A stretch of DNA of 24,808 nucleotides from positions 1 to 24,808 of the IMG/VR virus record IMGVR_UViG_3300006802_000522. The stretch is one strand, 5' to 3'. Below are positions 7,401 to 20,729 of this stretch, piece by piece (position 1 is the stretch's first letter; each line of letters opens with the position of its first letter). A model generated the notes under the pieces. The model was not told where the DNA came from and ran no database searches. It saw nothing but the letters and a program-made list of their open reading frames with translations. Source of the stretch: a virus. The translations under genes were made by a program, and so were the position numbers.

Positions 7401-7506
7401 AGAGGACACGAAGTGTGGGGCGAACTGCCGGTGCGTCCTCAGCGTCTGGACGCAGCGTGAGATTGACAGTGGTGACTATGTCCTGCTTTCTCACTTGAAC
7501 GAGTAG
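4411..7506 (+). CDS. portal protein fused to extra modules and a MuF-like C-terminus, 1031 aa
   Basis: Forms the dodecameric ring at one vertex of the head through which DNA enters and leaves. Residues about 50-455 look like a portal core: YWQLYKSTPDVRACVDSIARR near the start, LVYDAGAIELV, and the helical IWRTFGVMPIELGESQ typical of portals. After it come a Cys/His stretch (HTCTAECNHD, 499-508), a module at about 525-620 (KGLRWNEEGHG, ARHEVDKEGKGF, FPSPGRVAWALWGGD), and another at about 640-735 (FKRGVGAYNTNPES, DTDLLPEEHP). The end (about 780-1031) resembles Mu gpF minor head proteins, with C975/C978 and the closing CGANCRC (C1002, C1006, C1008). Portals are usually 400-600 residues. The start is ATG 4411 with GGAG upstream, preferred to GTG 4381. 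Confidence 0.87.
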   Translation: MPTEPKIRLVQPGVVRVGKPEIRAGNWLGQRPAPRSSQAMDLRDRKGWSHAAYTSSLYNTPNSHYSFYSQYRSLMPEQYWQLYKSTPDVRACVDSIARRISTWDWFIRVNEDPRNPEEYQRLTDVAARIRDFLKTPSTDGTTWQEMMVAVVTDLLVYDAGAIELVSDADGRLVELQSWLGSEWFPVTDEHGHLLRYEQQTEDTPENPIALPPQSLAYFKLYNNNRSVLGLPVLETVINECLTCVLSSEHAMLALDADEIPPGLLVLGGVAGQAAERARADLMSMKGKDHRIRVVTSPQPNGIDAKWLELRHTPKDLEMQQVVETMRRAIWRTFGVMPIELGESQGVPRATAEIQMDVASSHLISPILELLQARINTQVLPRLLDEADEGRVSFNFDRAAPLTAGEKLEAAKRSEILLEHGVITVNEVRAEMGMMPVEGGDVPTVVTALGPLPLAKVMTGMSPAETLPAAQQYGGEEKAGVITASQIVQSFLRSRDGAGHTCTAECNHDKEERKYEDIDFSVPKGVVEELEKGLRWNEEGHGGGGLRPETVAWARRMANGADISPAKAVKMRAWLARHEVDKEGKGFYPDQEGFPSPGRVAWALWGGDPAVPWSNKIVNQMRREDEEEGRNLSDLSEKVQKALKKKADDFNEEMEEGGFAEWKRTTARTLAAVFKRGVGAYNTNPESVRPTVNSADQWAYARVNSFLYAVEKEKFRSGKHDTDLLPEEHPMSTKGKSWRERALDSQWLPSAWAKPSKFKDVRTVDLRALAGDVEDYTRGVAELYISTADEVQAIVASAIASGGGKMSVPSSNTATRRINEALDDLVVRWSTMTLPYYISVSKSAYQSCSEWMGQEPAGDPARVALSYHNEAMLYLTDSIGLVGTLRNNILQIVRAATLSQRSRADEVDPDTDPIEILRLLDDEFAAQSHRITNWSGKLVRLTWLAVGSYLLSRTILQDGSANVWYYEWVAQEGKNCTTCVSEGSQGIRRFDEISVYPAEDTKCGANCRCVLSVWTQREIDSGDYVLLSHLNE

Positions 7507-7598: not shown

Positions 7599-10016
7599 AT
7601 GCGCGTTTCTGTACCTTCCGAAGGCGGCGACCATCAGCTTGAATGCTCCCTTGTGAAGCAGGGCGATGGCCGCAAAGTATGGTCTGCCCGCTGCCGAATC
7701 CCATGCGCTGGGTTCGGCTTCACTGGTGTGACTGTCGGTTCAAGTGAAAAGCCTGACGCACAGAGGGCGGAAGTAAACCCGGAAGAGGTCGGCAGGGGTG
7801 TTGTCTTCTTGGAGGGCTTTGCCAGCAGCAGCAGTGTGGATTGGCATGGCACAGAAATGAGCATGCGTGCGCTCTCCCATATGGAACAGCAGTTCAAGAG
7901 CGGCGTGCCGTATGTCCCATCCCACCGTGATGACGAATGGGATCAGGTGTTTGGCCGCACGGTTGACGCGCAGGTTGTTTCTGGACAAGTCCGAAAGAAC
8001 GGCGACTTTGATGGGCCAAACGACGGCTTTTTGCTCCGTGTTCGCGTAGCACTCGACTCCAGTGACCCAACGACAAAGAAGCTGGTCAGAAGCCTCGACA
8101 TGGGCAACACGGTTGGAATGTCGATCGGTGGCTGGTTTACAGAGATGGAAGTCATCACAAATGATGACGATGAAGTGGAGAGAATGATCATCCATGCGGT
8201 TGATCTGGACCACCTTGCAACGACCAGACGCCCGAGCAACCCGGATACTTGGATCACAGAGATGCACCGTTCTGTGCAGAGTCTGATCCAGAATAGCAGG
8301 GAGAAAACCGCAGGGGTTCGGGCCAGCTACAGCGGGGACTCCAACGGAGAACGCGCAGATCACACCGACTTCGAGCCGCACATGATGTACGACCCGAAGA
8401 CTGGTGAAGAGAAGATGGTGGAGACCTACGAGGAGCACCTTCGGCTTGCGGACCTTGGCTGGACGCACCAAAAGCCAGAAGAGGAAGAGGAAGAGGAAGA
8501 GGAAGAGACGCAGGAAGTGCCGGCAGAGGGTGAGAAGAAGAAGCACTACTACAGCCGTTCTGCAACCGCCTTCGCCAACCTGCCTGTCGCCCCAGCAGAG
8601 ATGCCTTTCAAGGGATCGAATGTCTCAGACAAGCAGATCAGGAACCACATCCTCACAATGTTTGAGACCAAAGAAGGTCCGGGGTGGGCAGAGCTGAGGA
8701 AGGCAAATCTCTGGTTCGACGAGGCAGACCCGGAGAATGTGGATTCATACCGGTTCCTGATTGCGCGGCCTTACGACCCGGATGACCCGGAAAATGCGCT
8801 GACGGAAACGGGCGACCTTCATGTTTTCAAGGATGCTGTCAGCGCCTCCATGGAGGAGCTTGAATCTGGCCCGAATCTTCCGGAAGAAGATGTTGTGGAG
8901 TGCATGGAGCACGCGCAGAAGTACATGGAGAAGTGGTCGGGCGAGGAAGAGGGCCTGGAAGAAGAAGAGATGAAGGGCGGCGGGTACTACAAGAAGAGGG
9001 CCATCAGCAAGTTTGAAGACTTTGACTTTGCAGAGCCGATGGATTCCTCTTGGAGCTTCGACCTCAAAGCGCAAGATGCTTTGTTGTACGAGGGTCGGGA
9101 AGAGGGCGACCCGGATTGGGAGCGGTATGGCCGTGCTCATGTCTATGTGGACAAGAGCAGAGCCGATACAAAAGCAGGGTACAAGCTCCCAATCGCAAAG
9201 CTCGAAAATGGAAAGATGCTTGTTTACTGGAAGGGCGTTGTTTCAGCGATGGGCGCTGTAAACGGTGCGAGAGGCGGCGTTGACATCAGCGACGCGGAAA
9301 AGAAACAGGCATACGAACACCTTGCCAAATACTACGAAAAGGCAGACAAGGAAGCCCCTGCGTTTTCCGGTCGTGCTATCGTAGATGAAACCGTTAGCCC
9401 TGTTCTTGACAAACAGGTGCAGACGAGCCAAAGTTCCCACAAAGAAGTAGACGCACATAGAGGCGCGACAGGGATTCTCACCAAAACCAGACCGGAGGGT
9501 CAACCAATGTCCGACCACACCACCAGCGAGGCTCCGCAGCCCGCTGAAACGGAGCAGGTCACGCTGGAAGCAATCGCTCGGAGCCTTCAGGCTCAGACCG
9601 AGCTTCTGAAGGCTGTGGTCGCTGCGAGTCAGCCCGCCGCCGAGCGTGCAGTCCCTGAACCTGTTGCCGCAGCACCCGACGAAAGCGAAGCTCTCAGAGG
9701 GCAGATTGCAGCACTCCAAGAACGCGTTGCCATCCTCGCTGCTGCACCGCAGCGCGTTGGTCGCGCAAAGCGCCTTGCCCCGCATCACCTCGATCGCACC
9801 ACCGGCACCTTTGGGTCGCTGGTCCGCAGCATCGAGACTTCGATGGGCGACACCGCACTTCACGCAGTCTGCAAGCGCCAAGCAGAACGACGAGACGCTT
9901 CCAACAAGGATCTCCCCACCCGTGGTGAGTTGCTGGAAGACCTCCGCGCAGTCCTTGGTGCAGCCTTCGCAGATGGCGTCATTTCCGATCCCGACACCCG
10001 TGCAGGCTGGAGGTAA
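7599..10016 (+). CDS. HK97-type prohead protease fused to repeated modules and a scaffold domain, 805 aa
   Basis: Maturation protease that cleaves prohead proteins before DNA packaging. Residues about 65-220 match the HK97/S78 protease pattern: VVFLEGFASSSSVDWHGTEM, the likely catalytic His109 in VPSHRD, and Ser175 in GMSIGGW. Most such proteases are about 200 residues. Here a ten-glutamate run (294-303) follows, then two related modules (about 322-447 and 469-585) sharing an LIARP/LPIAK strand, a VFKDAVSAS/YWKGVVSAM segment and a C-terminal EHAQKYMEK/EHLAKYYEKA helix. The last 169 residues look like a scaffold with its own internal start at 9507. ATG 7599 has a weak GAGAG ribosome site; GTG 7593 and TTG 7587 are alternatives. 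Confidence 0.85.
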   Translation: MRVSVPSEGGDHQLECSLVKQGDGRKVWSARCRIPCAGFGFTGVTVGSSEKPDAQRAEVNPEEVGRGVVFLEGFASSSSVDWHGTEMSMRALSHMEQQFKSGVPYVPSHRDDEWDQVFGRTVDAQVVSGQVRKNGDFDGPNDGFLLRVRVALDSSDPTTKKLVRSLDMGNTVGMSIGGWFTEMEVITNDDDEVERMIIHAVDLDHLATTRRPSNPDTWITEMHRSVQSLIQNSREKTAGVRASYSGDSNGERADHTDFEPHMMYDPKTGEEKMVETYEEHLRLADLGWTHQKPEEEEEEEEEETQEVPAEGEKKKHYYSRSATAFANLPVAPAEMPFKGSNVSDKQIRNHILTMFETKEGPGWAELRKANLWFDEADPENVDSYRFLIARPYDPDDPENALTETGDLHVFKDAVSASMEELESGPNLPEEDVVECMEHAQKYMEKWSGEEEGLEEEEMKGGGYYKKRAISKFEDFDFAEPMDSSWSFDLKAQDALLYEGREEGDPDWERYGRAHVYVDKSRADTKAGYKLPIAKLENGKMLVYWKGVVSAMGAVNGARGGVDISDAEKKQAYEHLAKYYEKADKEAPAFSGRAIVDETVSPVLDKQVQTSQSSHKEVDAHRGATGILTKTRPEGQPMSDHTTSEAPQPAETEQVTLEAIARSLQAQTELLKAVVAASQPAAERAVPEPVAAAPDESEALRGQIAALQERVAILAAAPQRVGRAKRLAPHHLDRTTGTFGSLVRSIETSMGDTALHAVCKRQAERRDASNKDLPTRGELLEDLRAVLGAAFADGVISDPDTRAGWR
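8478..8507 (+). repeat. five tandem GAAGAG hexamers encoding poly-glutamate
   Basis: Five perfect copies of a six-base unit inside the protease fusion encode ten consecutive glutamates (residues 294-303) between the protease domain and the first repeated module. The unit is a multiple of three, so copy-number changes alter linker length without breaking the frame. Confidence 0.9.
9507..10016 (+). CDS. nested in-frame scaffold protein (internal start), 169 aa
   Basis: An in-frame ATG at codon 637 of the protease fusion is preceded by GGAGGG (9494-9499) with a seven-base spacer, a better site than that of the full-length gene. It would yield a separate protein starting MSDHTTSEAPQPAET. The sequence is helical and Ala/Glu/Gln-rich (LEAIARSLQAQTELLKAVVAA, LRGQIAALQERVAIL), as capsid scaffolds are. 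It ends three bases before the capsid ATG. Lambda does the same: Nu3 scaffold is made from an internal start in the protease gene C. Arginine codons shift towards CGC/CGT here, as in the capsid gene, in keeping with separate high-level translation. Actual internal initiation is inferred. Confidence 0.72.
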   Translation: MSDHTTSEAPQPAETEQVTLEAIARSLQAQTELLKAVVAASQPAAERAVPEPVAAAPDESEALRGQIAALQERVAILAAAPQRVGRAKRLAPHHLDRTTGTFGSLVRSIETSMGDTALHAVCKRQAERRDASNKDLPTRGELLEDLRAVLGAAFADGVISDPDTRAGWR

Positions 10017-10018
10017 TC

Positions 10019-11029
10019 ATGTCGAACCCCGTGAGCCCTCAGTGGGCCAATCTCGATGATCGCCGCAAGGCCGCGTTTGAGCGTGCGATCAATGTCTCCG
10101 GTGCAGGCAGCGTTCTGGTCCAGAACTATGTCAACCGCATCATCCAGCAGCTTTCGATCCGCGAGTTCGGCGCTCTTGGTACGATGGATCGCCGCCCCGG
10201 TCAGGGCAAGCAAGCCGTCATCAACAGACGGACTTCCTCGACCATGACGGCTGCGAATGTGTGGGTGAGCGATACCGCAGGCCTGACGGAATCGACCGGT
10301 TCCTACGCGCAGGCGACCTTCGACTACCAGACGCTTGCCACCCGTGGAAAGCTGACCCGGAAGATGCGTGCCATTGGCCGCAGCTATGTGGACATTCTCG
10401 CAGAAGAGATGACCATGAAGCTGGATGACTTCAACGACTCGCTTGAGTCCGCGATGTTCATCGGCAACTCCGGCGCGATCTCCACCCAGATCGACGGTCT
10501 TCTCACTCAGATCACCGGCTTTGGTTCGAGCCAGTATGTCGCCAACACCACCGCTGTTGGTGGCGATTCGCTGACTCTCTCCAAGCTGGACGAAGCAATC
10601 GACGCAGTGAAGGGCTCCGCATCCCGTTCCGACCTTGCCATCTACGGCTCGTTCGCTGGCATCCGTGCCCTCAACGCTGCGCTTGCTTCCCGTCAGCGTT
10701 TCGACTCCATGGTCGAGATTGCTGCCGGCTTCCGTGTTCGCAGCTACGACGGGATTCCGCTCATCGTCTCGACCGGCGTTCCGGACGATTCGCTTGGTGC
10801 CGCGACCACCGGTCAGATCCTCGACATCACCGGCGAAAGCAGCAACCCGACAACCAGCTTGGTCATCGTGAACAAGCGGTACAACTGGGTGGAAGAGCTG
10901 ACCCCGACCACGATGATGCCGCTGGCTCGCGACGACAGCCAGTACGAACAGTTCGACCTCTTCTGGGATGGGGCGCTTGTTTGCTCCAACACCAAGGGTG
11001 CCTCGCTGCTCACGATGATCAAGACCTGA
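10019..11029 (+). CDS. major capsid protein, HK97-fold type, 336 aa
   Basis: The main shell protein of the head. It starts two bases after the protease/scaffold stop behind a strong GGAGGT. Length, position and texture fit an HK97-fold capsid protein: a helical N-terminus (VLVQNYVNRIIQQLSIREF), a glycine/threonine-rich loop region (RRPGQGKQAVINRRTSSTM), the segment GKLTRKMRAIGRSYVDILAEEM followed by a helix (LDDFNDSLESAMFIGN), an A-domain-like YGSFAGIRALNAAL, and a C-terminal strand DDSQYEQFDLFWDGALVC. There is no long N-terminal delta domain, which fits a separate scaffold. Codons favour C-ending forms and CGC/CGT, as expected of a highly expressed gene. A terminator follows. Confidence 0.88.
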   Translation: MSNPVSPQWANLDDRRKAAFERAINVSGAGSVLVQNYVNRIIQQLSIREFGALGTMDRRPGQGKQAVINRRTSSTMTAANVWVSDTAGLTESTGSYAQATFDYQTLATRGKLTRKMRAIGRSYVDILAEEMTMKLDDFNDSLESAMFIGNSGAISTQIDGLLTQITGFGSSQYVANTTAVGGDSLTLSKLDEAIDAVKGSASRSDLAIYGSFAGIRALNAALASRQRFDSMVEIAAGFRVRSYDGIPLIVSTGVPDDSLGAATTGQILDITGESSNPTTSLVIVNKRYNWVEELTPTTMMPLARDDSQYEQFDLFWDGALVCSNTKGASLLTMIKT

Positions 11030-11052
11030 TCGTCGTCGCAGTATGCGGCATG

Positions 11053-11089
11053 GCCCTCGGCTGATTTTCAGTCGGGGGCTTTCTGTTTT
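11053..11089 (+). terminator. intrinsic terminator after the capsid gene
   Basis: The arms at 11053-11064 and 11068-11079 form a 12-bp stem with two G-T wobbles and a TTT loop, followed directly by a T-rich run (TTTCTGTTTT, 11080-11089). This is a classical rho-independent terminator 24 bases after the capsid stop. Confidence 0.85.
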
Positions 11090-11108
11090 GATCCAGTCGT
11101 GATACAGT
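11080..11108 (+). promoter_or_regulatory. promoter candidate directly after the capsid terminator
   Basis: TTTCTG (11080-11085) and TACAGT (11103-11108) are 17 bases apart, with TG one base before the -10 (extended -10). The -35 part overlaps the T-run of the terminator. The same TGNTACAGT is found at 20811-20819 after the tail tube gene, which supports both. It would restart transcription for the gene at 11126, with a short leader that still includes its ribosome site. Confidence 0.5.
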
Positions 11109-11125
11109 CTCCGAAAGGAGTGCTG

Positions 11126-11593
11126 ATGTCAGGTATCCCGAGAAAGCCACCGGAAGAGGGCTGCTACCGTTTCGTCGTCACCAACCGGCAGATCCATGCG
11201 GAAGGCTCAGATGTCTATCCATTCGAGTTCATTTCGTATGGCGAAAGAAAAATGAGCCGTGTGATCTACATTCCATGGCTTGAGAAGAACCAACACTGCC
11301 TGTTCTTCAACACAAAGCCAGCGTTCGACAGAGCGTGCGCAGAAGGGTGGCAGGACATTACGCAGCAGTGGAAGCAACACCTCGAAGAAAACAAGGTGGG
11401 CCCGACCACCGAGAGCCAGCAGGCAATCATGCGGGCGTTGAGCACCGCATGGGAGAGCAAGTCTGATATTGTCGCCAGAAGCCAGATCGCTGACTCCGAA
11501 TGGCGTACTGCAATCAAGACCCTGATCGAAAAAGGGCTGGCTGAAAAGAAGGGAAACACAAACCGAAGCTATCGGTATCGCTTGGCGGAGTAG
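11126..11593 (+). CDS. winged-helix protein between capsid and connector genes, 155 aa
   Basis: Starts MSGIPRKPPEEGCYR at ATG 11126 with AAAGGAG upstream; GTG 11099 lies over the promoter and is rejected. Residues about 10-65 look beta-rich (YRFVVTNRQIHAEG, MSRVIYIPWLEKNQHCLFF). Residues 98-153 form a winged-helix pattern: a helix (QQAIMRALSTAWESK), a turn with DIVARSQIADSEWRTAIKTL as the recognition region, and a wing ending NTNRSYRYRLAE. Such domains bind nucleic acid, so this may be a regulator of late genes or of its own promoter. It follows a terminator and promoter and precedes the connector gene by three bases. A structural role is not excluded. Confidence 0.65.
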   Translation: MSGIPRKPPEEGCYRFVVTNRQIHAEGSDVYPFEFISYGERKMSRVIYIPWLEKNQHCLFFNTKPAFDRACAEGWQDITQQWKQHLEENKVGPTTESQQAIMRALSTAWESKSDIVARSQIADSEWRTAIKTLIEKGLAEKKGNTNRSYRYRLAE

Positions 11594-11596
11594 AAG

Positions 11597-12166
11597 ATGG
11601 CCAGTCTCACATCGAAGGAAAGTGTCAAACGGGCTCTTGGGATTCCCGCTGGCGTAACGATGCACGACACCTACATTGAGGAGTTGTTGGTCGTTGCGGA
11701 CGAGCAGATCATTTCCTTCTGTGGGATGTCAGGCATCACTGCTACAACCGTCTCGGAGACATACGACATTGGAACGAGGGGAGAAGACTCGTTGACCCTT
11801 CAAGGGTTCCCAATCACATCTGTTTCCTCTGTCGTCTCAGCAGGCCAAACGCTCACCAGCAGCCAGTATTATGTCGACAGCAGGTCTGGAACAATCAAGC
11901 TCACCTCTGCTGGGGCGTACTGGCCAGAGGGAAAGCAGGCCGTCAAGGTCGGGTATACTTTCGGGTATGCCACAACACCAGCAGACTTGAAGCACGCAGC
12001 TACGATCCTGACCTGCCAACACTTCAACAGCACCGGTCACGCTGGCTACTTGCAGGAAGCGGCGGGCGGGTATCGCTACAAGATGGATTCTTACGCGATG
12101 CCACCAGCGGCAGCGGCAATCCTCGCACGGTACAGGCGAATCTTTCCCAAAGGAGACTACCGATGA
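11597..12166 (+). CDS. head-tail connector (HK97 gp6 / phage connector type), 189 aa
   Basis: Adaptor protein that binds under the portal and joins head to tail. The features match this family: an N-terminal helical part (TSKESVKRALGIPAGVTMHDTY, then IEELLVVADEQIISFCG), a central beta region (ITSVSSVVSAGQTL, YYVDSRSGTIKL), the aromatic/glycine stretch VKVGYTFGYATTPADLKHAA, and a closing helix PPAAAAILARYRRIFP. The YxxGY...P.dlk.A segment is a recurrent feature of gp6-like connectors. The length is normal. It starts three bases after the previous stop with GGAG upstream, and its stop overlaps the next start as ATGA. Confidence 0.82.
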   Translation: MASLTSKESVKRALGIPAGVTMHDTYIEELLVVADEQIISFCGMSGITATTVSETYDIGTRGEDSLTLQGFPITSVSSVVSAGQTLTSSQYYVDSRSGTIKLTSAGAYWPEGKQAVKVGYTFGYATTPADLKHAATILTCQHFNSTGHAGYLQEAAGGYRYKMDSYAMPPAAAAILARYRRIFPKGDYR

Positions 12167-12564
12167 AGTTTTTTCGAGCAGACTGGGCTGGCGGCACGGT
12201 GGAGCTGGAAGGAAAGAGACTGAAGCCTCAAAAGGCAGGCTCAGTCTACATTCTGGAAGCGCATGCGAAGCACCGCGTCTCCCTTGTTGGACTTGGCTGG
12301 CGGGTGCTGTGTGCCCCCGTAGGCGTTTCAGGCAAGCCCGCCACGGCTGCACATGGGCCAACCACGCAGAACGCAGCCAGCGGGCCCTCACGGGCCGCTA
12401 TGGCGCTGTCTGGCAACGCCCGCACGGTAGCCCGCGCCGTAAAGGCAGGAAAAATGGATGAACTGCTTGTGGAAATGCTGGATCTTGAGAAAGCAAAGAC
12501 AAGCGGCAAGCGTGTCACTGTAATCTCGGTGATCGAACGCAGAATCGAGGCGATCTCAACATGA
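12163..12564 (+). CDS. small putative structural or neck-associated protein, 133 aa
   Basis: Begins and ends in ATGA overlaps, locked between the connector and the dehydratase. Residues 1-50 look beta-rich (KFFRADWAGGTVELEG, HRVSLVGLGWRVLCAP). The middle is a low-complexity Ala/Ser/Thr/Gly linker (about 51-85). The end is helical, with MDELLVEMLDLEKAKTSGKRVTVISVIERRIEAI, a short leucine-rich pattern seen at the ends of several phage neck-region proteins. No family is assigned with certainty. Position suggests a neck component or the last structural gene before the accessory cassette. Confidence 0.6.
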   Translation: MKFFRADWAGGTVELEGKRLKPQKAGSVYILEAHAKHRVSLVGLGWRVLCAPVGVSGKPATAAHGPTTQNAASGPSRAAMALSGNARTVARAVKAGKMDELLVEMLDLEKAKTSGKRVTVISVIERRIEAIST

Positions 12565-13580
12565 AGGTACTCGTCACAGGCGGCTGTGGTTTCATTGGCC
12601 AGCACCTTGTACAGATGCTCGTAGACAAAGGAGAGCGCGTCCTTGTCTTGGACATCGAGGACCGTTGCGCAACTGGCTCTGTCCGTGTCCGAGAGCTTGT
12701 AGGCGAGGGAATGTTCCATGGAGATGTGTGCGATCCAGCGATCGTCGACACTCTCGTTTCTTCTGTGGACATTGTCTTCCACCTTGCCGCACAGTCGCAT
12801 GTGGACGCGAGCATCGCAAACCCGCTGGGTTCCATGTATGTCAACGCAGTTGGAACACAGATCGTTGCCGCTGCTTGTGCGAAGCATGACACCGCACTTG
12901 TCTACTGCTCCACGGATGAAGTCTATGGAGACAACTATGTAGATCACCCTTCTGGTGAATACATGACTCTCAATCCGAGCAGCCCGTACAGCGCGGGAAA
13001 GGCTGCTGGCGAGTTCGCTGTACGGGCCGCAGCAAGAAGCCTCGGCCTCGAAAGGTGGGCCATCACAAGAGGGTGCAATGCGTTTGGGCAGAACCAGTAC
13101 ACCGAGAAGCTGATTCCGATTGTCTGCAACCTGATCCAGCAGGGCAAGCCGGTCACCATCCACGACAATGGTACGCAGATTCGGCAGTGGATCCATGTGG
13201 AAGACTTCTGCCGTGGGCTGATGACCGTTGGACGCCATGTGCTGTGCGGGGCAGAGAAAGTCTGCCCCATCTACAATCTCGCAGGCCCAAGAAGAATGTC
13301 CGTGCTGGACCTTGTGGTGCGATTCCACCATGTAGCAACCGGCAAGCATGTTCGAGACTTCAAGTCCATCTGCAACTTCGTCGGTGGCAGGCCGGGTCAA
13401 GACTGGAACTACAACATCTGCGACAAAAAGATGCTGGCAGGCTTCGGTTTCAAAGCAAAGCGAGACATCTGGTCGGAGAAGGAGATCCAGCTACTCCTGA
13501 ACCACTACGGCTCTGACAAGGAGTTGATGATCTCGGACTACTCGAATGTGGAGAACAAACATGCTTCCACTGGCTCGTAA
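12561..13580 (+). CDS. NAD-dependent sugar-nucleotide dehydratase/epimerase, RmlB-like SDR
   Basis: Extended short-chain dehydrogenase acting on a nucleotide-activated sugar, most like dTDP-glucose 4,6-dehydratase, which makes the 4-keto-6-deoxy intermediate of deoxysugars. Visible are the NAD-binding GGCGFIG (7-13), the strand IVFHLAAQSHVDAS (71-84), the dehydratase triad TDE (118-120) in STDEVYG, Y143 and K147 (YSAGK), NAFGQNQYTEKLIP (173-186) and the substrate-side RQWIHVEDFCRG. The late motif GRPGQDWNYNI resembles RmlB's GRPGHDxRY but with W and N changes, so substrate may differ. Length 339 is normal. It overlaps genes on both sides (ATGA before, 20 bases after), so it belongs to the phage operon. 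UDP-sugar epimerase activity is an alternative. Confidence 0.85.
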   Translation: MKVLVTGGCGFIGQHLVQMLVDKGERVLVLDIEDRCATGSVRVRELVGEGMFHGDVCDPAIVDTLVSSVDIVFHLAAQSHVDASIANPLGSMYVNAVGTQIVAAACAKHDTALVYCSTDEVYGDNYVDHPSGEYMTLNPSSPYSAGKAAGEFAVRAAARSLGLERWAITRGCNAFGQNQYTEKLIPIVCNLIQQGKPVTIHDNGTQIRQWIHVEDFCRGLMTVGRHVLCGAEKVCPIYNLAGPRRMSVLDLVVRFHHVATGKHVRDFKSICNFVGGRPGQDWNYNICDKKMLAGFGFKAKRDIWSEKEIQLLLNHYGSDKELMISDYSNVENKHASTGS

Positions 13581-14103
13581 TCAAGACTTCTACGGGTTTT
13601 TGCCGTGCAACAACAGCGAGAAGACCCTGCGAGACTCGCTGCACTACGCCAACACCACATTTCTGCTCTCTGGCAAGCCGCAGAAGTATGGACGCACAGA
13701 TGTTGTCTCAGCCCAAGGGGATGTTGATAGCTTCCGCATCCCTGGAGGAACGGTCGTATGGGGGCACGACGACAAGAAGATGGCAGAAGAGATTGTGGCA
13801 GCGGGTGGCTTCGTTGTTGTGCTCTCCAAGAAGGCTCTTGGGCGAAAAACAAAGGCTGCTGTAGACTCTCTCGTCAGGGGTGGCGTGAAGGTCTTTGACC
13901 TTGCACAAATCAAGAAGCCGCACCGGCTTGTCTATGTGGCTGGGTGCCCGGTCATGGAATCGTACCGTGAAGTCGATGGGCTCAAAGCGTTCCACACGCT
14001 GCCGATGCCTACTGTCGAAACAGAGAAACAAGAACAACAAGGGGTGCCTGATGCACGGAACAGTGATGGAATACCTGCGCAAGATGAAAGCCCGCTACCC
14101 TGA
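13561..14103 (+). CDS. hypothetical protein in the sugar cassette, 180 aa
   Basis: Starts MLPLARNQDFYGFLP at 13561 with GGAG upstream, inside the last 20 bases of the dehydratase gene. GTG 13546 is a weaker alternative. The body alternates strands and helices: GGTVVWGHDDKKMAEEIVAAGG, FVVVLSKKALGRKTKAAVDSLV, GGVKVFDLAQIKKP, RLVYVAGCPVMESYREV, suggesting a Rossmann-like alpha/beta fold. It loosely recalls nucleotide-binding SLOG/DprA-type folds, too weakly to assign. The last 35 residues are polar and probably disordered, and 53 bases are shared with the methyltransferase. Its place between dehydratase and methyltransferase suggests a role in the same pathway. Confidence 0.6.
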   Translation: MLPLARNQDFYGFLPCNNSEKTLRDSLHYANTTFLLSGKPQKYGRTDVVSAQGDVDSFRIPGGTVVWGHDDKKMAEEIVAAGGFVVVLSKKALGRKTKAAVDSLVRGGVKVFDLAQIKKPHRLVYVAGCPVMESYREVDGLKAFHTLPMPTVETEKQEQQGVPDARNSDGIPAQDESPLP

Positions 14104-14560
14104 ACACTTCAAGGGTGGTGTGGTGCTGGAATACGGCAGCAGGGACATCAACGGAACACCACGGCCACTTTTCGACAGTCCAGAAAAGTATGTCGGAATC
14201 GACTGCCACGAAGGCGCTGGCGTGGACTGGGTTGGCATCTGCCACGAGTACACGGAGATGGAAGAAGGCTCATGCGATGTGGTCGTCTCGACGGAGATGT
14301 TGGAACACGACCCGTATGTCGAGAAGACAGTCGCAGCAGCGTGGAAGATGCTCAAACCCGGTGGCATCTTTCTCGGGACCTGTGCTGGAAGATTGCGTGG
14401 TGCGCATCATCTGGAAGACAGCCCGACCCCCGGCTACTACGGTGGAGTGGACCCGGAAGACATCAAGGCATCATTGGCCCAAAACGGCGAGTGGAGCATG
14501 ATTGAGGCATCATTCGTGCGCGGTAGGCTCGACACGACTTGGTGCGCAGTCAAACAATGA
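14051..14560 (+). CDS. class I SAM-dependent methyltransferase, 169 aa
   Basis: Transfers a methyl group from S-adenosylmethionine. Motif I is VLEYGSRDING (25-35), the acidic residue after strand two is D51 (YVGIDCHEG), the motif IV region is SCDVVVSTEMLEH (74-86), and the helix and strand KMLKPGGIFLGT (99-110) follow, all in the order of Methyltransf_11-type enzymes. At 169 residues it is minimal, without an added substrate domain. The start is ATG 14051 with AAGGGG upstream; the frame is open back to 13895 but only as a shadow of the preceding gene. It overlaps neighbours on both sides. Its neighbours suggest a sugar or small-molecule substrate rather than DNA, and no DNA methyltransferase (D/N)PP(Y/W) motif is seen. 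Confidence 0.82.
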   Translation: MHGTVMEYLRKMKARYPEHFKGGVVLEYGSRDINGTPRPLFDSPEKYVGIDCHEGAGVDWVGICHEYTEMEEGSCDVVVSTEMLEHDPYVEKTVAAAWKMLKPGGIFLGTCAGRLRGAHHLEDSPTPGYYGGVDPEDIKASLAQNGEWSMIEASFVRGRLDTTWCAVKQ

Positions 14561-15132
14561 ACCGCAACATCGAAAGCAGGGAGCAGGTGCTTGCTCTCGC
14601 AGGCCGGTACAGGACCATCATTGTGACTGGTCCGCAGAGGTCTGGAACGACCGCTGCTTCACAGATGATCGCAGAGGATCTGGGGTACGAGTACATAGAC
14701 GAGGCACATCACGCGAATGAGATGGCCATGCTCACCCGTGTGTGCCTTGGTGCTGATGGCCTCAGAGATGGTGGCTTTGTTCTACAAGCACCTGCCCTTT
14801 CTTGGTGCATTGAGATGCTGCCGAGGGTCGGGTCAGTGATCGTGGTCTGGATGCAAAGAGACAGGGCCGCGGTCATTGCCAGCCAAGACAGAATCGGATG
14901 GACGAAGCAATGGGAGAGAGTTGAGCTTTCAAGGTACATCACCAAGTGGGGGTGTGATGCTCAAGAAAGGGTGGTGGACGCAAAAGTAAGAACATGGGAG
15001 AAGAAGCAGCGCAGTAGGATGAGAGTAGACACCGCAACTCTTTCCTACGAATCAGAGTATTTCCAAAACCATGATCGCTTCTTGGTCCAAGAAAACCGCG
15101 ACTACTCTCACCCAAAGCAGAAAATCCCATGA
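14557..15132 (+). CDS. sulfotransferase-family P-loop protein, 191 aa
   Basis: Starts MNRNIESREQVLALAG at 14557 in an ATGA overlap with the methyltransferase. The motif GPQRSGTT (25-32) after strand IIVT is the 5'-phosphosulfate-binding loop of PAPS sulfotransferases. VIVVWMQRDRAAVIASQDRIGW (about 94-115) fits the second region, where Arg and Ser contact the 3'-phosphate. TLSYESEYFQNHDRFL (161-176) resembles the usual lxyExL segment. The protein is shorter than most sulfotransferases, and a different P-loop transferase or kinase is possible. Position after dehydratase, unknown protein and methyltransferase suggests modification of a sugar, but the acceptor is unknown. Its stop overlaps the next start. 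Confidence 0.68.
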   Translation: MNRNIESREQVLALAGRYRTIIVTGPQRSGTTAASQMIAEDLGYEYIDEAHHANEMAMLTRVCLGADGLRDGGFVLQAPALSWCIEMLPRVGSVIVVWMQRDRAAVIASQDRIGWTKQWERVELSRYITKWGCDAQERVVDAKVRTWEKKQRSRMRVDTATLSYESEYFQNHDRFLVQENRDYSHPKQKIP

Positions 15133-15755
15133 TTACGACCTCCGCAAACAGGTACATGTCTGTTCTCAGGCAGACCTCCTTCATCATGGATGCAGCTTCT
15201 GCCGCAGCAACGATGAGTGTAGACCGCTCAGTCGCTAATCAGGTCACAGGCACCTATGCGCAGGTCGTTGTTTCTGGCGGGACAACAGGCAGCGGCACGG
15301 TAACGATCTCTGGCACTGATACTTCTGGTGCCGCCACCAGTGAGACGCTGACATACACCAGCAATGGAACCATCGTTACGACCAAGAAGTGGTCGACCAT
15401 TACTGGAGTCACCACTACCGGTTTGGAAGACGAGGCGACCGTGCCTACTGTATCGGTAGCTGCTGTCAGTGCAGACGGTGTCAGCAACCTGATCAGGAAG
15501 ACGATCGTTACAGGTAGACCGGCTCTTTTGGTTGAGAAAACCGCGCCGGGGTATCCAGCGACTACGGCTGGAACAAAAGAGGTAGACAAGGCCGTCATCA
15601 GATTCGACTTTGAGGAAGTCTGGAGACCAAGGGTCGATGACTTGCTTGTGGACGCGGCCACTTCTGAGGAGTGGCTGGCTGTCGGTTGTAGGCTTGTCGG
15701 TTTCGGCTTAGGAAAACGCCATTGGTATGTGGAATCTCACCGCTACCAAACATGA
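15129..15755 (+). CDS. putative head-closure or neck structural protein, beta-rich, 208 aa
   Basis: Starts in an ATGA overlap with the sulfotransferase-like gene. Residues about 40-110 are rich in Thr, Ser, Gly and Val with alternating strands (GTVTISGTDTSGAATSETLTY, then TTKKWSTITGVTTTG), a texture common in Ig-like or neck and tail proteins of phages. The C-terminal third (DKAVIRFDFEEVWRPRVDDLL to the end) has a different, mixed composition. It lies between the connector genes and the tail completion gene, the slot of the head-tail stopper in HK97-like phages. No enzymatic motif is seen. It could be the substrate of the glycosyltransferase that follows, given its Ser/Thr content, but this is speculative. 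Confidence 0.6.
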   Translation: MITTSANRYMSVLRQTSFIMDAASAAATMSVDRSVANQVTGTYAQVVVSGGTTGSGTVTISGTDTSGAATSETLTYTSNGTIVTTKKWSTITGVTTTGLEDEATVPTVSVAAVSADGVSNLIRKTIVTGRPALLVEKTAPGYPATTAGTKEVDKAVIRFDFEEVWRPRVDDLLVDAATSEEWLAVGCRLVGFGLGKRHWYVESHRYQT

Positions 15756-15781
15756 CACGAAAAACGCCCGGGAGGTGAAGA

Positions 15782-18610
15782 GTGTCTTTTGAGATCCAGA
15801 GAAACGAGGCCGTTGACTACACGGTCATCATTCCAACGATGGCAGAGCCACGGCTGATTGTGCCGTGTGTCGATAGTATTCTTCGCAGTGTGCCGAAGGG
15901 TACGAAGATGGCTCTCGTCATCGGAAGCAACACCGAAAATGCCGAGCACAACGCTGCCTCTCGGTATGCGGTGAGTGCATCTGTCGAAGCATACAACGAA
16001 GCGAACCAGACGGAGATCCACCTTGATTGGGTGGAGTTTGGCATGCCGATGGGCTGGACCGGTGCAGTCAACGGCTGCCTCCATGCGTGCGCAGAAGACG
16101 CAGATGGCCTCGCGGACACGGTTGTCATTATGAACGATGACACGATCGTGACCTTTGGGTGGCTGCACAAGCTGGAAGCTGGCCTCCATACAGACAAGAT
16201 CGGCTTGTTCAGCAGAAAAGCAGCAATGGACGCTCAGGGCCTTCCTTCCTCTCATGCGCTGGTCGCGATGGAAGAGAAGCGCCCATGGAAGGTCGGCATG
16301 GTCGGCCCGGTGACAAACAATGCTGCTGGAATGCAGCGCGTCAATCTGCCGCAGGTCAACCTCGACACCGCCTCCTTGTTCTCCATGCAGGAGAGCGAGA
16401 TGATCAACCAGTTCTCGCGGCAGAACGAGGAGCGCAATCTCGGGCAGGTCTTTGAGACCGATTTCCTCTCCGGCTTCTGCGTTGCGTACCGTCGAGAGAT
16501 GATCAACGATCTGCTGCTGGAAGACCTGTCAGGCTGGCACTTCCTTGATCCGGTCTTTGGTGTTGGCGGCTATGACGACAACGACATTGCAGTCCGCGCA
16601 CGGGAAGCTGGCTGGAGAGCCGGCATCTGCATGGACACATATGTTCATCACTTCGGCCACCAGACGCTCGACAACATCGCGCCAGAGATGATGCGGGGAA
16701 TGAAAAACGCGAATGTGTATGTCAAGAAGTGGCAGAAGTACACGCAGCGTGATCAGCGCATTGTTGCCACCTACAGAGTCAAGCTCAACACATTCCACGA
16801 CTACATGCTTCTGCGCAGCAGTGTGGCCCGCTCCGCGCAGCTTTTCGACGGCATCAGTATTCTCTGGACAGGTGCGCCTTCCAGCGTGTCAACTGCACCG
16901 GACTGGCGACCAGAATCCTTGAAAGATGAAGAGCTCTCCTTCATCCAGAAGTCCCTCAAAGCCTACCAGCGCGGCGGAAAGAAGCTGCAAAAGCTCACGG
17001 AAGACTGGGTGGGCTTGATCTCCGGAGAAGAGGTTTCTGTCGTTGCGGAAAAATGGAACGGAGACTTTGACGAGAGGGAAGAGAGAAACAAAGGCATCGA
17101 GCTTGCCTACAGCATGGACCCAGATTGGGTGATCTCCATCGACCACGACGAAGTAGTGGAAGACAGAATCGACCGGGCGTTCATCGAGCGGTTGATGAAA
17201 AACCCCAACCCGCTCGTCAGCGTGTACGACTTCAGCTGGATCAACCACTGGGATTCGCCCCGCCTCTACAGAAGCGATCAGCCTTGGTGCTGGGGCTACA
17301 GTAGCAACATGCGCGGCTTCCGCATGTGGCGCACCGGCAAGAACAACCGGCGATACATTCCGCTTGGGTACGGAGAAAAGGGTCTGCACTGCGGAAACTG
17401 CCCAGAGTACGGGTTCATTTCTCGGCGTGTCTGCTCAATGCGCTTCCGGCACTACGGGTACATCAGGTCCGAGGACCGGTATCGTAAGTTCAAGTGGTAC
17501 ATGGAGAAAGACCCGAACCCAGACCCGATGCTGACAGGCAACCCGGATGGGTACACGCACCTCGTCAACGAAGAGAACATGACGCTGTCGGCGTTCCGGG
17601 CAGACAACGGCATCTGCTATACGATGCTCCTGCACAAGGAAGAGCAGACAAACGACTTCCACAGAATCATCGACCGGCTGTACCCGGTATGCGACTACAT
17701 GAACATTGTGTGGACAGCCGAGGGGGAGGTGCCAGAAGGCATTGCCGACATCGCTTCTGCATACGGTGTCGCCATTTGCCGGGAACGGTTTGAGAACGAT
17801 CTCGCCGCTGTGCGGAATCGGGGCCTGCAAGACATTCACGCAAACCGCCCAAAGCATGCCCGGTGGGTGCTTTCTCTGGACTCGGACGAGTATTTTGAGG
17901 ATGAGTGGCGTGCGACCGTCAACATCAGGCGCATGGCCGAGTGCAACAACTCTTGGGCGTGGATGTTCCGTTTCAAAAATCACAGGCCAAACGGGACTCA
18001 CAACTACAGTGAGACGGCCCGCATGTTCTTCTTGGATCCAAGTGGAATCATGCAGTACACCGGAAAGGTGCATGAGACTGTCGAGCACTCTCTTGCGGAG
18101 CTGAAAGCTCGTGGAGTACACCCGCAGGTCAAGTACGCTCCATTTGAGATGGACCACATTGGCCTTGCGATCGACAACGAGGGCCTTCAAAAGAAGCTGG
18201 AGATGTATACCCGCTTGCTTGTTGAGGAGATCAAGGAGCGGCCCACAAGCTGTGGTCCGTGGGTTTCTCTCGCCTTGCAGTACGGCAACGAAGGTGACTT
18301 TGATTCGATGGAGCGGTGCCTGATTCAGTCTGTGAATCTTGCGGGCACAGCGTTTCTTCCCTTCAAGGAGATGGGCACCTTCCACCTTCGCAAGGCGCAG
18401 GTGATGCTCAACCAGTGCCTTGCCCGCCTTGCAGAGGGCCACCCGATGCACTCGTACATCGCTGGCATGAGCAGCATGCTTGCAGAGTATGTGCAGCCGC
18501 AGGCGGTGTCTGGATTGGCCGCAGAGGGTAAGCCTCAGAAGCTCGATGTCGACTTGGAAGACTTGATGAAGCGAAGCCATGATGCGATGGTGGGTCATCA
18601 AGCCAAGTAG
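15782..18610 (+). CDS. multi-domain GT2-type glycosyltransferase, 942 aa
   Basis: Transfers sugars from nucleotide donors. Domain one (about 12-320) has a GT-A start YTVIIPTMAEPRL, a metal site NDD (118-120) in VVIMNDDT, and the acceptor-side GGYDDNDIAVRAREAGW (262-278). Domain two (about 355-570) lacks a clear start but has RNKGIELAYSMDPDWVISIDHDE (D454/D456). Domain three (about 611-795) has CYTMLLHKEEQ, RNRGLQDI and WVLSLDSDEYFED (D700/D702). A helical TPR-like tail (WVSLALQYGNEGDFDSMERCL) follows. The start is GTG 15782 with GGAGGTGA upstream. It sits between structural genes with short gaps. No signal peptide or membrane segment is seen, so it should act in the cytoplasm, on virion proteins or on a host glycan precursor. 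Confidence 0.85.
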   Translation: MSFEIQRNEAVDYTVIIPTMAEPRLIVPCVDSILRSVPKGTKMALVIGSNTENAEHNAASRYAVSASVEAYNEANQTEIHLDWVEFGMPMGWTGAVNGCLHACAEDADGLADTVVIMNDDTIVTFGWLHKLEAGLHTDKIGLFSRKAAMDAQGLPSSHALVAMEEKRPWKVGMVGPVTNNAAGMQRVNLPQVNLDTASLFSMQESEMINQFSRQNEERNLGQVFETDFLSGFCVAYRREMINDLLLEDLSGWHFLDPVFGVGGYDDNDIAVRAREAGWRAGICMDTYVHHFGHQTLDNIAPEMMRGMKNANVYVKKWQKYTQRDQRIVATYRVKLNTFHDYMLLRSSVARSAQLFDGISILWTGAPSSVSTAPDWRPESLKDEELSFIQKSLKAYQRGGKKLQKLTEDWVGLISGEEVSVVAEKWNGDFDEREERNKGIELAYSMDPDWVISIDHDEVVEDRIDRAFIERLMKNPNPLVSVYDFSWINHWDSPRLYRSDQPWCWGYSSNMRGFRMWRTGKNNRRYIPLGYGEKGLHCGNCPEYGFISRRVCSMRFRHYGYIRSEDRYRKFKWYMEKDPNPDPMLTGNPDGYTHLVNEENMTLSAFRADNGICYTMLLHKEEQTNDFHRIIDRLYPVCDYMNIVWTAEGEVPEGIADIASAYGVAICRERFENDLAAVRNRGLQDIHANRPKHARWVLSLDSDEYFEDEWRATVNIRRMAECNNSWAWMFRFKNHRPNGTHNYSETARMFFLDPSGIMQYTGKVHETVEHSLAELKARGVHPQVKYAPFEMDHIGLAIDNEGLQKKLEMYTRLLVEEIKERPTSCGPWVSLALQYGNEGDFDSMERCLIQSVNLAGTAFLPFKEMGTFHLRKAQVMLNQCLARLAEGHPMHSYIAGMSSMLAEYVQPQAVSGLAAEGKPQKLDVDLEDLMKRSHDAMVGHQAK

Positions 18611-18618
18611 GAGCCGCT

Positions 18619-19107
18619 GTGAGCGTGACCGTTGAGCTAAAGGAGATGAACGCCGTAATCAAGAGATTGCGGTCCATCGGCAATGGCCGCATCGGTAGGC
18701 GTGCGAAGCAGCGCGCGATTCGAGCGGCAGGAAAGCAGTTGGAGCGTCACACGCTGGTCAATATCAGCAATACGCAGTATTCTCTGGCACAGCTTGAAGC
18801 GATGGATCACCCCTACGCTCGACGGCACGGCTCGATCGGGGTCCACCCTGAAAAGCCGTACACGATTCACCGCCAAAGCGGCACCCTTTCGAGAAGCCTT
18901 GTCAGCAAGATGAAGGAAGGAAAGGAACCGGTTTGGCGTATCGGGTTCAAGTACGCTTCCAAAAGGTATTTCAAGTACCTGATTACTGGTACAAAGGTCA
19001 TGCTTCCAAGGAATGTCCTGTATGATACTTCGCAAGAAGAGGTGGTCAGGACGAGCATGATCAAAGCCGTCAAGGGCGTGCTCTCCAAAGAGCTTCCGAA
19101 GGAGTAG
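18619..19107 (+). CDS. tail completion / neck protein, HK97 gp10-like, 162 aa
   Basis: Joins the tail to the neck. The sequence fits the gp10-like family: a short strand and helix (VELKEMNAVIKRLRSIG), a basic helix (RRAKQRAIRAAGKQLERHT), then a region with Tyr, Arg and His (YARRHGSIGVHP, YTIHRQSGTLSRSLVSK) and the segment YLITGTKVMLPRNVLYDT near the end. GTG 18619 is the likely start, with AGGAG just upstream and only eight bases after the glycosyltransferase stop. Position directly before a DUF3168-like tail terminator matches HK97 order. Identity is moderately secure. Confidence 0.72.
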   Translation: MSVTVELKEMNAVIKRLRSIGNGRIGRRAKQRAIRAAGKQLERHTLVNISNTQYSLAQLEAMDHPYARRHGSIGVHPEKPYTIHRQSGTLSRSLVSKMKEGKEPVWRIGFKYASKRYFKYLITGTKVMLPRNVLYDTSQEEVVRTSMIKAVKGVLSKELPKE

Positions 19108-20177: not shown

Positions 20178-20729
20178 ATGCCCTACAATATTCCTACCGT
20201 CACTACCAACGACATTTCCTTTGGCCCCGCCGTCCTCTACATGGGCGCATCCGGCTCGACCCCCACTGTTGATGTTGGTTCGATCACGGAAGATGGTGTC
20301 ACCATCGAGATCACTTCTGAGAAGAAGTACATCACTCAGGGCAACCCGAAGATCAACATCTACTCCTTCTCGCAGGCGCAGTCTGTGATGTTGAAAGTCT
20401 CCGGCATCGAATGGGACTTCACCAATCTCGCGTACGCGATCGGGGCCGGTGTCACCACAGTCTCGGGTACGGAAGAGACTTTCGCAATGGGTGGCGATCC
20501 GCTGATCGAAACCGTTGCACTCCATGTTGAACACTACATGGCTGTCAGCGGCAACACCATGAATGTGTACATCTGGAAGGCGGGCAGTGACGCTGGCCTT
20601 AGCTCCGTCTTCGGTGCAGATGAACATTCCTTCGAGTTCAGCTTCACCGCCCTGCGCTCCACGACCGACTGGAACGGTGCCTCCCTTGGGCCGAAGCAGC
20701 AGCTTGTGAAGTTCGAGCGGGTGCTGTAG
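20178..20729 (+). CDS. major tail tube protein, 183 aa
   Basis: Forms the stacked rings of the tail tube. The call rests on position directly before the tail chaperones, on length, and on a beta-sandwich texture: FGPAVLYMGASG, VDVGSITEDGVTIEITSEKKYI, INIYSFSQAQSVMLKVSGIEWDFTNLAYAIG, and a final SSVFGADEHSFEFSFTALRSTTDW strand, all as in gpV-type tube proteins. ATG 20178 is chosen, with AAAGAGG nine bases upstream; TTG 20172 is an alternative. Codon use is biased to C-ending forms as in the capsid gene. A large hairpin and a promoter candidate follow it. Confidence 0.8.
   Translation: MPYNIPTVTTNDISFGPAVLYMGASGSTPTVDVGSITEDGVTIEITSEKKYITQGNPKINIYSFSQAQSVMLKVSGIEWDFTNLAYAIGAGVTTVSGTEETFAMGGDPLIETVALHVEHYMAVSGNTMNVYIWKAGSDAGLSSVFGADEHSFEFSFTALRSTTDWNGASLGPKQQLVKFERVL

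What the first reader, a model, noticed from the sequence alone, without database searches (positions are those of the whole stretch)
12561..18610. A dispersed sugar-modification pathway built into the head-tail joint of the virion operon
Seen: an RmlB-like dehydratase, an unknown alpha/beta protein, a methyltransferase and a sulfotransferase-like protein are joined by overlapping start and stop codons between connector genes. A 942-residue glycosyltransferase follows one structural gene later, still inside the structural operon. Known: RmlB makes 4-keto-6-deoxy sugars, which are often methylated or sulfated; some tailed phages glycosylate their own capsid or tail proteins. Inference: these genes may make a methylated and/or sulfated deoxysugar and attach it to virion proteins during assembly, since they are expressed together with them. 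The alternative is modification of the host surface glycan. I do not know of a described phage system with this exact set in this position.
Basis: partly seen in the sequence, partly recalled or inferred. Interest (0 to 1): 0.75.

Follow-up and report, generated by a model that had tools for sequence, protein, structure and literature searches.

The report
Sugar-decorating gene cassette in phage virion operon
An uncultured tailed phage carries, wedged between its neck genes, a compact set of enzymes that probably builds a methylated or sulfated sugar and attaches it to its own particle; the same set sits in the same place in many related phages, with swappable decorating enzymes, which makes it a new, modular variant of the little-known habit of phages glycosylating their virions.

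Summary
The genes are real and placed as described. Between the head-tail adaptor (11597-12166) and the neck1 gene (18619-19107) lie an RmlB-type 4,6-dehydratase, an unknown protein, a methyltransferase, a sulfotransferase-like protein, a beta-rich connector-region protein and a 942-aa glycosyltransferase (GT) with three GT2-like modules. Methyltransferase and sulfotransferase mostly replace each other; sister lineages carry other sugar SDRs, a GDSL-like protein, or a DegT aminotransferase. GT module 1 keeps its motifs in all lineages with a sugar SDR and has lost them in six of eight without one. GT module 3 resembles SunS and GmaR, both protein glycosyltransferases. The 'unknown alpha/beta protein' follows the GT rather than the dehydratase and is predicted to have a phosphoesterase (Vps29-like) fold without catalytic motifs. 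Published precedents (Corndog, Che8) place sugar and methyl genes in phages with glycosylated virions. Best reading: a modular virion-protein glycosylation cassette, new in its parts but not in kind. The virion target remains inferred.

The parts
10019..11029 (+). major capsid protein (HK97/SU10-like); anchor used to find relatives
   Evidence: PHROG 212 2e-13; 13 and 62 loci found with it
11597..12166 (+). head-tail adaptor; 5' boundary of the cassette
   Evidence: PHROG 442 1.3e-30
12163..12564 (+). short variable protein between adaptor and dehydratase
   Evidence: a 74-167 aa gene at this place in most relatives, little sequence conservation
12561..13580 (+). RmlB-type nucleotide-sugar 4,6-dehydratase (extended SDR)
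   Evidence: Pfam 1e-48; PDB hits dTDP-glucose 4,6-dehydratases to 3e-38; STDEVYG and YSAGK motifs; TIGR01181 208 bits, under cut-off
13561..14103 (+). conserved protein of the GT-bearing lineages; predicted metallophosphoesterase/Vps29-like fold without catalytic motifs, Pro/Ala/Lys/Glu-rich tail; possible scaffold or acceptor
   Evidence: leave-one-out HMM support for most members; AF model pLDDT 86; Foldseek Vps29 1.6e-4, VIA Z 8.5, rmsd 3.6 over 126; motifs absent
14051..14560 (+). SAM-dependent methyltransferase
   Evidence: Pfam Methyltransf_11 5e-7; PHROG 32762 8e-25; same family beside GTs in S-CBS4 and phiPsal1
14557..15132 (+). sulfotransferase-like P-loop protein
   Evidence: GPQRSGTT loop without Walker lysine and R101-x7-S109, invariant in 8 homologues; fold model pLDDT 84, top Foldseek hit Teg14, kinases tied
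15129..15755 (+). beta-rich, Ser/Thr-rich (25%) protein of the connector region, probably structural
   Evidence: retained in L074, which lacks sugar genes and GT; composition
15782..18610 (+). three-module GT2 glycosyltransferase with TPR-like C terminus
   Evidence: Pfam Glyco_tranf_2_3 1.6e-11; module 3 matches SunS 4e-5 and GmaR 2e-3; motifs across 28 homologues
18619..19107 (+). neck1/tail-completion protein; 3' boundary
   Evidence: PHROG 5 7.6e-6
20178..20729 (+). probable tail tube protein; second anchor used to find relatives
   Evidence: PHROG 2175 1.3e-11, Ig-domain protein; 27 loci
11052..11080 (+). terminator-like hairpin after the capsid gene
   Evidence: 13 pairs, 8 G-C, T-rich tail; consensus match only

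Best explanation
A late-expressed virion glycosylation cassette. The RmlB-type enzyme turns a host-supplied nucleotide sugar (dTDP- or UDP-glucose) into its 4-keto-6-deoxy form; the methyltransferase and the sulfotransferase cap the sugar or the finished glycan; the soluble three-module GT2 enzyme transfers sugars in the cytoplasm onto one or more virion proteins made from the same operon. GT modules 2 and 3 are the constant core; module 1 would add the special sugar, as it degenerates where the sugar genes are missing. The capping enzymes are swappable, so related phages would carry chemically different coats. Shown: gene content, order, motifs, co-occurrence, replacement of MT by ST. Inferred: donor, reaction order, acceptor, late expression, and that the target is the virion.
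For: Conserved order HTA - small gene - SDR - 13561 homologue - MT and/or ST - 15129 homologue - GT - neck1 in relatives; L009 and L020 overlap by 1507 bases at 100% and together show one complete slot. MT alone in L037, L086, L091, L093, L102; ST alone in L036, L038, L094 and L009/L020; both in the window and L089. Alternative sugar enzymes at the same place: TylF O-MT 2.5e-20 in L010, DegT aminotransferase 4.5e-78 in L065 and a GDSL-like protein 0.003 in L100, other SDR types in L041-L044 and L100. Module 1 motifs intact in 15 of 15 lineages with an SDR in the slot, 2 of 8 without (Fisher p 2.8e-4, not corrected for kinship). Module 3 matches SunS and GmaR. No predicted membrane segment in the window's cassette proteins. 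dN/dS about 0.08-0.27 for RmlB, MT, ST and GT. The same MT family stands beside GTs in the virion operons of phiPsal1 and S-CBS4. Corndog carries an O-methyltransferase and GTs between portal and protease (PMC4351075); glycosylated proteins reported for Che8, Corndog and Myrna (PMC12363180).
Against: No acceptor identified; no proteomics of any member; no cultured member found. RmlB is below the curated equivalog score. The sulfotransferase rests on motifs and a weak Pfam hit, and its relatives L022-L030 sit beside DNA-handling genes, not sugar genes. Eight GT-bearing lineages lack the SDR, and L010 has sugar genes without a GT in its 27.6-kb fragment. The module-1/SDR link rests on two independent losses. 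The slot also holds genes unrelated to sugars in some relatives.
Confidence: 0.62

Rival explanations
1. Host-surface modification: the enzymes change a host cell-envelope glycan late in infection, for example to stop re-adsorption of progeny or superinfection.
For: Nucleotide-sugar and transferase genes are typical of envelope glycans; large contigs L031-L034 carry ST and RmlB relatives inside long sugar islands.
Against: No flippase, lipid-carrier transferase or membrane protein in the cassette; no segment over the usual hydropathy threshold in the window's GT, RmlB, MT or ST. Placed between adaptor and neck genes and kept there across the lineage. GT module 3 resembles protein glycosyltransferases.
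Confidence: 0.13
2. No single pathway: the slot is an insertion hot spot that collects unrelated cargo genes, and sugar enzymes are only part of it.
For: The slot or its edges also hold non-sugar genes in some relatives: a phosphoesterase-like 355-aa protein in L042, an MT-A70-like gene in L065, a cytosine-methylase-like gene in L059 (read from sequence). The SDR types differ between lineages.
Against: Same gene order across strongly diverged phages; what is swapped in is mostly sugar chemistry (SDR, MT, TylF, DegT, GDSL-like); GT module 1 degenerates in two separate clades that lack the SDR.
Confidence: 0.15
3. The MT and ST act directly on amino acids of the virion proteins or on another small molecule rather than on the sugar; the ST-like protein may even be a P-loop kinase.
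For: ST fold comparison ties with small-molecule kinases; ST relatives also occur beside non-sugar genes.
Against: The kinase Walker lysine is replaced by Thr in all eight homologues, while the sulfotransferase loop and the R-x7-S motif are invariant. MT relatives in cultured phages sit directly beside GTs.
Confidence: 0.07

Closest known systems
Mycobacteriophage Corndog (cluster O), gp35-gp38
   Same: O-methyltransferase, two glycosyltransferases and a putative GlcNAc-transferase inside the virion operon; enzymes seen in infected cells but not among the purified-virion proteins; capsid modification proposed (PMC4351075); listed among phages with glycosylated proteins (PMC12363180)
   Different: Located between portal and protease; no dehydratase or sulfotransferase is named in the passages read; several separate GTs instead of one three-module GT. 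Homology to the window's GT was not tested.
Mycobacteriophages Che8 and Myrna virion glycosylation (Freeman et al. 2023, known here only through papers citing it)
   Same: Phage-encoded GTs reported to glycosylate capsid and tail tube (PMC12363180)
   Different: In the Che8-like phage Maravista the GTs lie near the 3' end of the genome, not in the structural operon (PMC11256854)
Pontimonas phage phiPsal1 (MG835450)
   Same: GT - MT - GT genes between major capsid and neck genes; MT of the same family (E 6e-38)
   Different: MT on the opposite strand, small separate GTs, no RmlB or ST; its discoverers state that they do not discuss the phage further (PMC6106888)
Synechococcus phage S-CBS4
   Same: Two GTs and an MT of the same family (E 3e-43) in the head-gene region
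   Different: Between portal and protease; no RmlB, ST or three-module GT found in the region
SunS (SPbeta prophage) and GmaR glycosyltransferases
   Same: GT2 enzymes that act on a peptide or protein (general knowledge); detectable sequence similarity to GT module 3
   Different: Each is much shorter than this three-module protein; not known as virion-modifying enzymes

Membership tests
dTDP-glucose 4,6-dehydratase (RmlB) | Rossmann GxxGxxG, catalytic T-D-E and YxxxK | tested here: met
   GGCGFIG, STDEVYG, YSAGK; conserved in close relatives
dTDP-glucose 4,6-dehydratase (RmlB) | NCBIfam TIGR01181 equivalog cut-off (365.1 bits) | tested here: not met
   208 bits; so called RmlB-type, not RmlB
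dTDP-glucose 4,6-dehydratase (RmlB) | activity on dTDP-glucose | not testable with these tools
   needs enzyme assay
PAPS-dependent sulfotransferase | 5'-PSB loop (R/K)SGT(T/S) without Walker lysine | tested here: met
   GPQRSGTT in all 8 homologues
PAPS-dependent sulfotransferase | 3'-phosphate site R-x7-S | tested here: met
   R101 and S109 invariant
PAPS-dependent sulfotransferase | fold closer to sulfotransferases than to P-loop kinases | tested here: inconclusive
   Foldseek top hit Teg14, kinases tied or ahead in VIA
PAPS-dependent sulfotransferase | Pfam PF13469 gathering score | tested here: not met
   18.8 vs 27 bits; so called sulfotransferase-like
GT2 glycosyltransferase | curated Pfam score and DxD-type motifs | tested here: met
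   PF13641 45.1 vs 27 bits; acidic motifs conserved in modules 2 and 3
Phage virion glycosylation system (Corndog/Che8 type) | phage-encoded GT | tested here: met
   GT at 15782-18610
Phage virion glycosylation system (Corndog/Che8 type) | glycan found on virion proteins and lost in a GT mutant | not testable with these tools
   needs mass spectrometry and a knockout
Phage virion glycosylation system (Corndog/Che8 type) | homology to Che8 gp110 or Corndog gp38 | not tested
   Corndog record not found under the accessions tried
GtrABV-type host-surface (seroconversion) system | membrane flippase and membrane-bound GTs | tested here: not met
   no segment above the usual hydropathy threshold in the window's GT, RmlB, MT or ST
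Calcineurin-like metallophosphoesterase (13561 protein) | DxH, GDxx(D/N/R), GN(H/C)(D/E), GHxH motifs | tested here: not met
   no motif set in the window protein; only isolated matches in the 20 homologues

The most novel reading that the evidence does not exclude
A whole uncultured phage lineage carries a modular 'virion glycotype' locus: a constant three-module glycosyltransferase with its partner protein (13561), plus exchangeable sugar-building and capping modules (methyl, sulfate, GDSL-type acyl chemistry, amino sugar), so that related phages would present chemically different, in some cases sulfated, glycans on their particles.
Probability: 0.4. Interest if true: 0.78.

Novelty: new variant of a known kind. 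Interest (0 to 1): 0.58.

Why it matters
Virion glycosylation by phages is documented in the sources read here only for a few mycobacteriophages. A fixed locus with swappable caps across an uncultured lineage would suggest that coat chemistry is under diversifying selection in nature (evasion of defences, adsorption, stability), would offer a phage enzyme for sulfated protein glycans, and gives a direct test: which virion protein carries the sugar.

Tried and rejected
Full-length tblastn of GT, ST, 15129 protein and tail tube against 50,697 phage records: no hits, so no cultured member was found. Hosts: the one clear genome hit is a 78-kb scaffold in a Myxococcales MAG, too weak for host assignment. 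A narrow GT profile scan reached few relatives; capsid and tube profiles worked better. ST relatives in L022-L030 were first taken as sugar genes but lie beside replication-type genes. 15129 protein: no PDB match. The viral fold library gave nothing usable for the 13561 protein. Paper searches for phage sulfotransferases or this gene set found nothing relevant. Freeman et al. 2023 itself is not held; cited through other papers. Corndog's record was not found under two accessions. Corrections made on the way: the generic 'RmlB' labels in L010, L041-L044 and L100 are different SDR types.

Full report
WHAT IS THERE. The window is a 24.8-kb virus record with a left-to-right virion operon: TerL, portal, protease, capsid, small wHTH-like gene, head-tail adaptor, the cassette, neck1, tail completion, tail tube, tape measure. 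The finding's genes exist, co-oriented and tightly packed; the junctions from the adaptor to the 15129 gene are ATGA overlaps or longer overlaps. Near-identical sequences occur in other public contigs, so this is not an assembly artefact.

GENE BY GENE. The dehydratase has the SDR nucleotide loop, the T-D-E triad typical of 4,6-dehydratases and YSAGK; its best solved relatives are dTDP-glucose 4,6-dehydratases. It stays under the curated RmlB cut-off, so I call it RmlB-type. The methyltransferase is a short class I enzyme. The sulfotransferase-like protein has GPQRSGTT, where a kinase would have a lysine, and an invariant R-x7-S, as expected of the PAPS sites of sulfotransferases (general knowledge); fold comparison alone does not separate sulfotransferase from kinase. 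The GT holds three GT2-like modules and a TPR-like end; module 3 is the part related to SunS and GmaR. The unknown protein has a confident model (pLDDT 86) whose fold matches are phosphoesterase-fold proteins, Vps29 first, at modest Z; the catalytic motifs are absent. The 15129 protein is probably structural, as it stays in L074, which lacks the sugar genes and GT.

RELATIVES. Capsid and tube profiles brought in about 80 loci, many of them overlapping stretches of the same contigs. In the clade nearest the window the slot reads SDR - 13561 - MT and/or ST - 15129 - GT - neck1. MT and ST mostly replace each other; only the window and L089 have both. Farther out, the SDR type changes, a GDSL-like family or a TylF methyltransferase or a DegT aminotransferase appears, or the sugar genes are missing while GT and 13561 remain (L011, L014, L068, L111). 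Across four pairs of relatives, dN/dS is well under 1 for the cassette genes; 13561 is the fastest or second fastest gene compared.

A LINK BETWEEN GT AND SUGAR GENES. Modules 2 and 3 of the GT keep their acidic motifs in nearly all 28 homologues. Module 1 keeps its motifs ([NS]DD, and [DE]DND) in all 15 non-redundant lineages with an SDR seen in the slot, and in 2 of 8 without; the two exceptions carry a protein at the position of the GDSL-like family. On a GT tree built without module 1 the motifs changed twice, each time in an SDR-less clade. The Fisher value (2.8e-4) ignores kinship and the paired test has too few contrasts, so this is suggestive. It is still the most specific sign that GT and sugar genes work together.

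TARGET. For virion proteins: cassette embedded between adaptor and neck genes; soluble GT without membrane segments; module 3 like protein glycosyltransferases; the same MT family beside GTs in the virion operons of phiPsal1 and S-CBS4; and the published precedent of Corndog, where methyl- and glycosyltransferases in the virion operon were proposed to modify the capsid (PMC4351075) and glycosylated proteins were later reported for Che8, Corndog and Myrna (PMC12363180). For host glycans: only the general association of such genes with envelope polysaccharides. Caveat on expression: a hairpin after the capsid gene may reduce downstream transcription; co-expression has not been measured.

VERDICT. 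Observation confirmed; interpretation partly supported. It works like the virion glycosylation of mycobacteriophages, extended by its own sugar synthesis and by a sulfate/methyl capping choice. Filed as a new variant of a known kind, with the virion target inferred, not shown.

Noticed in passing
L022-L030, e.g. L022:578-1129: Relatives of the sulfotransferase-like protein sit between a conserved ~150-aa gene and a YqaJ-like exonuclease gene in another phage group; L022 also has a PAPS-reductase-like gene nearby (read from sequence). Role unknown.
   Followed up: no
L031 and L032, around 9950-11505: ST relative directly followed by an RmlB relative inside a long sugar-gene island of contigs of 89 and 139 kb: the same pair in another setting.
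   Followed up: partly
window 4411-7506: The portal protein is about 1030 aa and its C-terminal third ends in a Cys-rich MuF-like motif; possibly a portal-MuF fusion.
   Followed up: no
window 11126-11593: A gene with a weak winged-helix match lies between capsid and adaptor in nearly all relatives; possibly structural rather than regulatory.
   Followed up: no
L041:6367-6984, L043:10229-10789, L044:13686-14264, L045:11108-11851, L058:4097-4825, L100:3428-4072: A 186-247 aa family (GDSL-like in L100 only, E 0.003) takes the MT/ST place, between SDR and 13561 homologue; otherwise no Pfam match.
   Followed up: partly
window 11052-11080: Strong terminator-like hairpin right after the capsid gene.
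   Followed up: no
L111 (Myxococcales MAG scaffold): A related virion operon with GT and 13561 homologue in a genome collection, the only clear hint of a host group; may be binned phage DNA.
   Followed up: no
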